Origin: Gloeomargarita sp. SKYB120
Lineage (GTDB): Bacteria; Cyanobacteriota; Cyanobacteriia; Gloeomargaritales; Gloeomargaritaceae
Assembly: GCA_025062155.1 (NCBI GenBank)
Contig: JANXAM010000012.1
Span: forward strand, 1 to 63,307
Length of the DNA stretch: 63,307 nucleotides
Reading direction: 5' to 3'
Part shown: positions 19,349 through 63,307 of the stretch, piece after piece
How the letters are laid out: each line of letters starts with the position of its first letter
How positions within the stretch are numbered: position 1 is the stretch's first letter
Position numbers and translations under genes: made by a program
The notes under the pieces: model-generated
What the model was told of the DNA's origin: nothing
What the model saw: only the letters and a program-made list of their open reading frames with translations
Databases searched by the model: none

Positions 19349-20122
19349 AGGCACAATCTGGGGACCTACAGGAGTATCCAACACGTGTGCAGCAATGCCG
19401 AAGACCTCTTGCAGGTGAGCTGGCTTGAGAACTTCCTGGGGGTCCCCCATCGCCCGCAATCGTCCCTGCTGCAGGAGTCCCACCCGGTCGCTGTAGCGCA
19501 ACGCCAGGTTCAAATCATGTAGCGCCACCACTAGGGTCAGCCCCCGTTCCTGCTGCAACCGGCGCAACTGCTGGAGCAGATAAAGCTGGTAGTGTAGGTC
19601 CAAAAAGGTGGTGGGTTCATCGAGCAGGAGAATTTCGGGGTCTTGGGCAAGGGCCAGGGCCAAAAACACCCGCTGGCGTTGGCCCCCCGATAGCTCGCTC
19701 ACGGGCCGGTCTTGCCAGGGCAACAGTTCCATTTGCGCCAGCGCCCGGTTCACCTGGGTTTGACTGGCGGCATCTAGGTCCCATTGCCACCACGGTTGAT
19801 AGGGATGGCGCCCCAGACTCACTGTCTCCCGCACGGTGAGACCCGCTGGCAGTAAAGGTGACTGCGGCAGTAGAGCCAGATGTCGAGCCAATTCCCGGGC
19901 ACTATAGTCCCCTAACCTGCGTCCATGCAGAAAAACTGCTCCCTGGCTGGGCACCAGCAAACGGCTGAGTAACCGCAGCAGGGTGGATTTGCCCGAGCCA
20001 TTTGGGCCTACTAGCGTCAGCCATTCTCCTGGGTAGATTTCCAAGTCAATCCCTTGGACCACGGGTTGCCTGGGCTGATAACCCCCTGAAACTCCCACTG
20101 CCGCCAAGATGGGTCCTGACAT
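19334..20122 (-). CDS. Iron-type ABC transporter ATP-binding protein (FecE/FhuC-like)
   Basis: The ATPase for uptake of an iron complex, heme or cobalamin. From the ATG at 20122 it has 262 residues. Walker A is VGPNGSGKST, the signature is ELSGGQRQRVFLALALAQ, and Walker B is EILLLDEPTTFLD; the D-loop and switch HDLNLALRYSD are present. The frame extends to 20386 only as a shadow of the permease gene. The start is 2 bp after the permease stop, so the two are co-translated. FecE, FhuC, BtuD and HmuV cannot be separated by motifs alone. Confidence 0.88.
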   Translation of the reverse strand: MSGPILAAVGVSGGYQPRQPVVQGIDLEIYPGEWLTLVGPNGSGKSTLLRLLSRLLVPSQGAVFLHGRRLGDYSARELARHLALLPQSPLLPAGLTVRETVSLGRHPYQPWWQWDLDAASQTQVNRALAQMELLPWQDRPVSELSGGQRQRVFLALALAQDPEILLLDEPTTFLDLHYQLYLLQQLRRLQQERGLTLVVALHDLNLALRYSDRVGLLQQGRLRAMGDPQEVLKPAHLQEVFGIAAHVLDTPVGPQIVPLHPL

Positions 20123-62206: not shown

Positions 62207-62279
62207 GCCGTAGTAGCTCAGGGGATAGAGCAACCGCCTTCTAAGCGGTCTGTCCCTGGTTCAAATCCAGGCTACGGCG
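62207..62279 (+). tRNA. tRNA-Arg (anticodon TCT)
   Basis: A 73-nt cloverleaf. Acceptor GCCGTAG pairs with CTACGGC, discriminator G. D-arm TAGCTCAGGGGATAGAGCA. Anticodon stem ACCGC/GCGGT encloses loop CTTCTAA with anticodon TCT, for AGA and AGG codons. T-arm CCTGGTTCAAATCCAGG. CCA is not encoded. It lies 250 bp from the tnpB stop. Confidence 0.95.
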
Positions 62280-62473
62280 TGGGGTAAAACTAGCTTCCTG
62301 ACGGGGTTTTCTAACTGTCCTTTCCACTTGGTTACAACTAGCCAAATTTAGTGGAAAGTGACGGTGAGAGGTAGTGCTATGTAGACTAAGCCGTTTAAGA
62401 TTGTCATATAATGAACGTGTTGTTATGGAGTGAGAGAATGCCTAAACCATACTATAGCTGAGCTGCTTTAGTT

Positions 62474-62489
62474 TGTCATAGAGATGACA
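62474..62489. repeat. Perfect hairpin downstream of tnpB
   Basis: TGTCAT (62474-62479) and ATGACA (62484-62489) form a 6-bp stem with a 4-nt loop, 42 bp beyond the tnpB stop. IS200/IS605 elements have subterminal hairpins recognised by TnpA, and the tnpB 3' region also encodes the guide RNA, so this is a candidate for the right-end hairpin. The element boundary was not located. The rest of the 250-bp gap (62280-62530) shows no gene; TGATCA occurs twice at 62529-62543. Confidence 0.35.
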
Positions 62490-62530
62490 GGAAAACCAGA
62501 GACGGGGCCACACCGCTTCCAAACCGCTGA

Positions 62531-63307
62531 TCATCGCTGATCAACGCTGGAACTTGCACTCAGTGCAAGCCTGTTGGACTTATCCAGTGATGGCTCACCA
62601 GTGCCAACTTCCTGCTTCATCGCACACATGGCTCGTAGACCGCCATCAGACGTTCCGCCGCCAGAGGTGGCTCCACAGGCAGCCACGGCTGGACTCTCCG
62701 CGGTTGAGTAGTAGTGGTTCCGCAGGTTGATGGCCGCGTTCAGATCACATCTGAACCCGCAGTGGGGACAAACGAACAACTCACTACTACCCAATTTCGT
62801 GTGGACGTGGCCACACCTGGAGCACAACTTGCTCGATGGAAACCAGCGGTCGGCAACGACCAGTTGGCTCCCGTAGAGCCGGCACTTGTACTCCAGCTGC
62901 CGCTTGATTTCATACAGACCAAGGTCTGAGATGGTACGCGCCAGATACCGGTTCCGCAACATTCCCTGCACGTTCAGGTCTTCCACAACAACCGTCTCGT
63001 GGTTCTTGGCAACGGCCGTCGTTAGCTTGTGGATGGCATCCGAACACAGACAGGAGATGCGGTAGTGTAGCTTTGCTACCCGGAGTCGAGCCTTTTCACG
63101 ATTTTTACCCCCTTTAACACGCCTGCTAAGCCTTCTTTGCCACAAGCGGAGCCTTCTCAAGGACCGCTCAAGCGCCCTGGGACTCTCAAAGACTTCACCA
63201 CTCGAAAGCACCGCGAGCTTCCGACTCCCCAGGTCAACCCCGACAACGTCTATTTTCTTCGGCGTGGGCTGCGGTTCAAGCTCGTAGTGGAACGACACAA
63301 ACCACCG
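62531..63307 (-). CDS. tnpB: IS200/IS605-family TnpB nuclease (partial, runs off right edge)
   Basis: The C-terminal 258 codons of an RNA-guided nuclease of the TnpB type, open to the window edge, with WFVSFHYELE first. RuvC catalytic residues are visible: Asp in VVGVDLGSRKLAVL, Glu in VVVEDLNVQGM and Asp in CDLNAAINLRN. The zinc ribbon CSRCGHVHTKLGSS and CPHCGFRC lies before the last one. A 50-residue Gly/Ser-rich tail ends the protein. TnpB cuts DNA guided by an RNA made from the element's right end. No TnpA is in view; it may lie beyond base 63307. Confidence 0.9.
   Translation of the reverse strand, partial: RWFVSFHYELEPQPTPKKIDVVGVDLGSRKLAVLSSGEVFESPRALERSLRRLRLWQRRLSRRVKGGKNREKARLRVAKLHYRISCLCSDAIHKLTTAVAKNHETVVVEDLNVQGMLRNRYLARTISDLGLYEIKRQLEYKCRLYGSQLVVADRWFPSSKLCSRCGHVHTKLGSSELFVCPHCGFRCDLNAAINLRNHYYSTAESPAVAACGATSGGGTSDGGLRAMCAMKQEVGTGEPSLDKSNRLALSASSSVDQR

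What the first reader, a model, noticed from the sequence alone, without database searches (positions are those of the whole stretch)
62390..63307. TnpB locus next to tRNA-Arg with an unassigned guide RNA
TnpB keeps all three RuvC acidic residues and its zinc ribbon, so it is probably active. The 250 bp after it hold a perfect hairpin and short TGATCA repeats but no gene; the right end and the guide sequence after it were not placed. It is 250 bp from a tRNA, so its target site could be native chromosomal sequence.
Basis: partly seen in the sequence, partly recalled or inferred. Interest (0 to 1): 0.5.

Follow-up and report, generated by a model that had tools for sequence, protein, structure and literature searches.

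The report
TnpB element inserted inside a mini-transposon
Next to a transfer-RNA gene lies a probably decaying copy of a common RNA-guided DNA cutter (TnpB) whose right end and guide could be placed: the guide is not native chromosome but a piece of a small mobile repeat that this genome carries in dozens of diverged copies.

Summary
The TnpB locus is real; its right end, left end, guide and adjacent motif could be placed. The tnpB frame (minus strand) stops at 62531 and runs off the contig at 63307. Copies on C8 and C36 share its 3' part up to 62513, so the right end is ...GGAAGCGG and the guide is minus-strand 62512-62493, TGTGGCCCCGTCTCTGGTTT. That is the left half of a ~104 bp MITE beside an IS630-like remnant. 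Contig C38 ends with tnpB codons 1-55, the left end and the MITE's right half: the element split one MITE at a GG. The empty site reads CAGGG+guide; at C8 the motif is GAGGG. This is IS607-type end chemistry. The 3' part of tnpB plus right end looks like a conserved guide-RNA scaffold. Of 38 distinct MITE sites examined, 20 keep the motif, each with at least 4 guide mismatches. Ordinary system, neat insertion history.

The parts
62207..62279 (+). tRNA-Arg (anticodon TCT), neighbour, not the target
   Evidence: ARAGORN; Rfam tRNA 67.7 bits; same tRNA in the genus relative G006, where similarity stops at window 62360, before the mobile DNA
62386..62451 (+). left end and first codons (ATGCCTAAACCATAC) of an IS630-like transposase gene, interrupted by the MITE
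   Evidence: 13 other copies shown, 77-88% identical over this stretch, 10 of 13 running on into the same coding-like sequence; the name IS630 is recalled from the N-terminal motif, no family search was made
62453..62514 (+). left part of a ~104 bp MITE (TATAGCTGAGC...); the last two bases CC (GG on minus) are the inferred exchange dinucleotide
   Evidence: 62450-62511 is 90% identical to positions 3-64 of the intact copy at C24; positions 67-109 are at C38:19256-19298, 98%
62493..62512 (-). predicted 20-nt guide TGTGGCCCCGTCTCTGGTTT
   Evidence: first 20 bases beyond the shared right end; one exact place in own genome, this one
62513..62700 (-). right end / guide-RNA scaffold, overlapping the 3' part of tnpB; ends ...GGAAGCGG at 62513; 5' extent of the RNA is inferred
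62531..63307 (-). tnpB, 258 codons (C8 codon 145 onward), open at the contig end
62744..62746 (-). RuvC-III Asp codon; 4 residues after the last zinc-ribbon Cys instead of 6
   Evidence: compare L131 CGFRCDRDLNA with window CGFRCDLNA
62528..62543 (-). TGATCA-GCGA-TGATCA hairpin across the tnpB stop, within the scaffold

Best explanation
A TnpA-less, IS607-type TnpB element of about 1.3 kb that inserted at a GG inside a MITE. It encodes TnpB and, from the 3' part of the gene plus the right end, a guide RNA whose guide is the MITE sequence flanking the insertion. In its working state the complex would recognise CAGGG followed by TGTGGCCCCGTCTCTGGTTT, that is, the same MITE without the element, cut it, and so favour repair from a copy that still has the element (retention; inferred from published TnpB models). 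This copy is probably decaying: a two-residue shortening before the RuvC-III Asp, and no IS607 or IS200 transposase found in the genome. Shown by sequence: both ends, the two MITE halves, guide, adjacent motif, conservation of the scaffold. Inferred: the join of C12 and C38, transcription, cleavage, retention, loss of activity.
For: Right end: window, C8 and C36 match up to 62513 and not beyond. Left end and split MITE: C38 ends in tnpB codons 1-55 (221 of 228 bases as in C8) next to the MITE's right half. Of the tnpB pieces listed for this genome, only the C12 and C38 contig ends are unpaired (one search counts a fourth match that it does not list, probably the C36 remnant, which matches residues 353-407). 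Motif: CAGGG here, GAGGG at C8. In 7 of 9 copy pairs of other genomes a left boundary could be read: 12 loci, GG at the junction in 12 and GGG in 10 (not L066, L142); two pairs gave none. Ren 2024 reports TAM GAGGG in 4 of 22 strains, the 2023 NAR paper GGG for ISXfa1, the 2018 eLife paper (G)GG as IS607 target (passages). Family: IS607_TnpB is the best-scoring NCBIfam model though under its cut-off (C8 271.8 of 350; window 221.2), guided_TnpB is over its cut-off; 15 of the 30 plasmid rows shown carry an IS607 annotation. Scaffold: of 27 loci aligned by eye, 26 end in CGG and 1 in TGG; a CCTG:CAGG helix pairs in 56 of 60 cells over 12 distinct motif pairs. Decay.
Against: No transcript evidence. 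Codons 56-144 are not assembled, and the C12-C38 join is inferred, not read across; gene order in relative G006 did not confirm it. The letters D, E, D are present, so the shortened spacing may be tolerated; no structure was predicted. Between window and C8 the middle of the gene shows protein-level constraint (pN 0.19, pS 0.80), so the proteins were long functional. TnpA could lie in the missing part of the genome or have acted from elsewhere. Four of 26 loci scanned lack the TGAAGCAGGAA scaffold motif within one mismatch (L124, L132, L134, L138). The folding surplus of the scaffold is modest (z -2.4 and -2.0); RNAalifold gave no consensus on 24 right ends; the helix was chosen after looking, and its shuffle mean is already 52.7 of 60.
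Confidence: 0.77

Rival explanations
1. Fully active RNA-guided nuclease that keeps the element in place; the RuvC-III shortening is harmless.
For: D, E, D letters kept; open frame; pN/pS about 0.24 in the middle of the gene against C8, and the last 33 bases of the right end identical to C8.
Against: Spacing 4 occurs once among 45 matched strings, 41 having 6 and 2 having 7; the other exception is C8 with 10; no IS607 or Y1 TnpA found.
Confidence: 0.2
2. A RAGATH-18-type IS607 TnpB with a stand-alone RNA as in Ren 2024.
For: Sub-threshold RAGATH-18 match at 62609-62679 minus, 24.1 bits (cut-off 44.9), E 0.083 in 1208 bases; GAGGG motif shared.
Against: No RAGATH-18 match in C8, C36 or 7 loci of relatives up to E 10 (more sequence and so tighter filters), nor in the whole genome at E <= 0.001 (whose 14 controls did not ring either); the scaffold overlaps the gene, which Ren 2024 says theirs does not (passage).
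Confidence: 0.04
3. The apparent insertion into a MITE is an assembly chimera at the contig end.
For: The contig ends inside the element; other contigs also end near these repeats, e.g. C30, C14, C28, C53; gene order did not confirm the join.
Against: The MITE boundary lies 795 bases inside the contig; both contig ends carry bases that differ from C8 (7 of 228; 4 of the first 120); the two MITE pieces cover 3-64 and 67-109 of one query.
Confidence: 0.04

Closest known systems
IS607-family TnpB elements, ISXfa1 (2023 NAR paper PMC10711439; passages seen)
   Same: TnpB of the same family by best profile and by named relatives; GG at both ends; GGG-type adjacent motif; guide RNA read from the right end, guide after the GG
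   Different: no tnpA in the element or found in the genome; RuvC-III spacing altered; guide taken from a MITE
ISFba1-type IS607 TnpB with RAGATH-18 RNA (Ren 2024, PMC11061315; abstract, outline and passages seen)
   Same: GAGGG motif, reported there for 4 of 22 strains
   Different: RAGATH-18 not supported here; scaffold overlaps the gene
Cyanobacterial pro-Fanzor TnpBs (PMC10711439; passages seen)
   Same: IS607-type; probably the same host group (inferred)
   Different: DLG instead of DPG at RuvC-I, and no Glu six residues before the zinc finger
Solved TnpBs: AI-designed nuclease 9yyg (E 4.9e-50), 8iaz (1.2e-38), TnpB 8bf8 and 8h1j (1.2e-36), for the C8 protein
   Same: homologous over residues ~86-371
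   Different: that 8bf8 and 8h1j are the IS200/IS605 protein of ISDra2, with other ends and motif, is recalled

Membership tests
TnpB (RNA-guided nuclease family) | OrfB_IS605 and TNB domains, guided_TnpB over curated cut-off | tested here: met
   (guided_TnpB 202.5 bits for the window, 253.6 for C8, cut-off 100)
TnpB (RNA-guided nuclease family) | RuvC D-E-D and zinc ribbon in normal register | tested here: inconclusive
   letters present; spacing to the third Asp 4 instead of 6-7
TnpB (RNA-guided nuclease family) | guide RNA made and used for cutting | not testable with these tools
   no expression or assay data
IS607 family element | GG exchange dinucleotide at both ends and in the target | tested here: met
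   in C24, the intact MITE compared, the same place reads CAGGA, in C29 CAGGG
IS607 family element | serine-recombinase TnpA | tested here: not met
   no PF00239 in own genome at E <= 0.001, controls ring in 10 of 14; hence 'IS607-type TnpB-only element', not an autonomous IS607
IS607 family element | NCBIfam IS607_TnpB over cut-off | tested here: not met
   best-scoring model, 271.8 (C8) and 221.2 (window fragment) bits, cut-off 350
IS200/IS605 element | Y1 TnpA | tested here: not met
   no PF01797 in own genome, controls ring in 5 of 14
RAGATH-18 TnpB | RAGATH-18 RNA over gathering score | tested here: not met
   24.1 bits against 44.9
pro-Fanzor | DPG at RuvC-I and Glu six residues before the zinc finger | tested here: not met
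   window has GVDLG and W at that place, with the Glu in VVVEDL upstream; definitions

The most novel reading that the evidence does not exclude
A TnpB whose guide comes from a multicopy MITE meets many motif-bearing near-targets in its own genome; either MITE divergence is what lets such an insertion persist, or the RuvC-III shortening was kept because it stops self-cutting, leaving an RNA-guided binder of MITE copies.
Probability: 0.06. Interest if true: 0.6.

Novelty: new member of a known kind. Interest (0 to 1): 0.28.

Why it matters
It gives a natural reading of both ends, the motif and the guide of a TnpB element from sequence alone, and a natural case where the guide belongs to a repeat family, which makes the question 'how do TnpB elements survive inside repeats' testable. 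On whether such a case is in print: searches for TnpB with 'miniature inverted-repeat' and 'guide' (5 papers), TnpB with MITE and 'guide RNA' (2 papers) and at least 5 of 6 terms on solo, repetitive or self-targeting guides (25 papers, 12 listed) showed none by title or start of abstract; I opened none of these, and the library lacks most subscription papers.

Tried and rejected
RAGATH-18 as the scaffold: one sub-threshold match, not repeated in the copies or relatives. A left end at C36: none in the loci held, so I call it a right-end remnant. Gene order as a test of the C12-C38 join: the stretch after the tRNA in G006 had only one 35-base match on C38, so it neither confirms nor refutes. The one genome-contig scan gave two distant loci of a gut MAG, 43 and 45% identical. 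The first zinc-ribbon regex was wrong and matched 0 of 67 loci; in the corrected run 12 loci still gave no match. One spacing of 7 (L125) may be a regex artefact of CCPCC.

The right-end suffixes were set by eye, so '26 of 27' is partly circular. Left out of it: L124, L132, L134, L138 (no motif), L146 (same end as L125), and L069 and L072-L076 (cut, broken or not taken up). Boundaries independent of the motif come from sets of copies: window/C8/C36, L067/L125/L146, L127/L129, L066/L068/L077, L070/L071, L133/L135.

Full report
What is there. On the minus strand a TnpB frame of 258 codons stops at 62531 and runs off the contig at 63307; the window is contig C12, 63307 bases long, of a 91-contig, 2.48 Mb, 96.44% complete genome. 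It matches OrfB_IS605 and the TNB zinc-ribbon domain. PF01385 finds two TnpBs in the genome, this one and a 408-residue copy on C8; a right-end remnant lies on C36. The host is probably a cyanobacterium: the five best plasmid rows for the C8 protein are from Microcystis, Nostoc, Stanieria and Gloeothece (that these are cyanobacteria is recalled). The genome itself is unnamed.

Right end and guide. Window, C8 and C36 agree through ...TTTGGAAG(C/T)GG and part after it, at window 62513. In other genomes sets of copies part at the same kind of place...GGAGCGG in L067, L125 and L146...GAACGG in L127 and L129...GACGG in L066, L068 and L077. Over 27 loci the end is CGG in 26 and TGG in 1 (C36), with single-copy ends picked by eye. 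The guide is therefore minus-strand 62512-62493, TGTGGCCCCGTCTCTGGTTT.

What the guide is. The flank is made of two repeats. Window 62386-62451 is the left end and first codons of an IS630-like gene (name recalled, not searched), and 62453-62512 the left half of a MITE with TATAGC...GCTATA ends. With the intact C24 copy as query, 43 matches were found in the genome, 40 of 86 candidates having been scored, so this is a lower bound. Among them C12:62450-62511 covers query 3-64 and C38:19256-19298 covers 67-109: two parts of one MITE.

The other side. Contig C38 ends at 19523 with tnpB codons 1-55, preceded by a left end which, with the motif's AGGG, is 98% identical over 64 bases to that of C8, and by the MITE's right half. 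Codons 56-144 fall in the gap. On the minus strand the left flank reads ...AGAGTCGCAGGG and the right flank TGTGGCCCCGTC..., which in intact MITEs are adjacent up to point differences (C24: CAGGA CGTAGCCCCGTC; C29: CAGGG CGTAGCCCCATC). So the element entered at a GG and its adjacent motif is CAGGG. At C8 it is GAGGG, and the C8 guide CGCCGATGGCAAGCGTCCCA starts five bases before the likely ATG of a gene that looks like a DNA glycosylase (not searched). In other genomes 7 of 9 compared copy pairs gave a left boundary: 12 loci, GG in all 12, GGG in 10.

Scaffold RNA. Between window and C8 the last 61 codons, overlapping the right end, have pS 0.16 and pN 0.12, while the 159 codons before have pS 0.80 and pN 0.19: expected if DNA or RNA rather than protein is kept there, or if this part recombined. 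In L070 and L071 GCCTGTGG lies beyond the tnpB stop, and in L071 GAAGCAGGAA too. Of 26 loci scanned, 22 have TGAAGCAGGAA within one mismatch and 4 do not. A CCTG:CAGG helix pairs in 56 of 60 cells over 12 distinct motif pairs, with CGTG:CACG and CTTG:CAAG among them; shuffles average 52.7 and 29 of 5000 reach 56 (related sequences, helix chosen after looking). Window and C8 scaffolds fold with z -2.4 and -2.0.

Targets. The 20-base guide has one exact place in the genome, its own, and two with 3 mismatches, one preceded by CAGGA, one by GGGGA. The guides of C36 and C8 have 0 and 2 further places within 3 mismatches, so at that distance the MITE guide is no richer in targets than an ordinary one. 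At looser distance it differs: of 38 distinct MITE site sequences in the stretches held (identical ones collapsed), 20 carry CAGGG, with 4 to 10 mismatches; the closest site of all, 3 mismatches, has CAGGA. Ren 2024 reports loss or strong impairment by single mismatches in positions 1-13 for ISFba1 in human cells (passage), so self-cutting is not expected.

Activity. D, E and D are present but CGFRC-DLNA is two residues short. Of 46 rows one is the no-match class (12 loci); of the other 45 strings 41 have spacing 6, two 7, the window 4 and C8 10. No PF00239 and no PF01797 protein was found in the genome. I read both copies as stranded and decaying; this is inference.

Mosaic. The first 38 codons of the fragment are nearly identical to C8 (pS 0.04), the next 159 nearly saturated (pS 0.80): the two copies exchanged or share their 5' parts.

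The tRNA. In relative G006 the same tRNA-Arg neighbourhood is 80% identical up to window 62360, about 25 bases before the IS630-like remnant; further on G006 has its own MITE-like stretch in the other orientation, 77% over 43 bases. So the spacer after this tRNA holds mobile repeats in both, but the TnpB element entered the MITE, not native sequence.

Verdict. A new, probably decaying member of a known kind; the repeat-derived guide is its one uncommon feature.

Noticed in passing
own genome, e.g. C24:16279-16395, C29:467-557, C34:22515-22607: A ~104 bp MITE family with IS630-like ends, 43 matches as a lower bound; several contigs begin or end near copies.
   Followed up: partly
C8:27034-28359 (L009 1535-2860): Second TnpB copy, its right end five bases before the likely start codon of a DNA-glycosylase-like gene, with RuvC-III spacing 10 instead of 6.
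   Followed up: partly
C36:19799-19990 (L010): Right end without an intact tnpB and with no left end found, 84% identical to the window; its guide AAAACGATTGGACTCCTGGC has no other place in the genome within 3 mismatches.
   Followed up: partly
   Followed up: no
window 62534-63307 against C8: Sharp mosaic: near-identical 5' part, nearly saturated middle, conserved right end.
   Followed up: partly
L080 (G006), after the tRNA-Arg: A MITE-like stretch in the opposite orientation in the same spacer, 77% over 43 bases.
   Followed up: no
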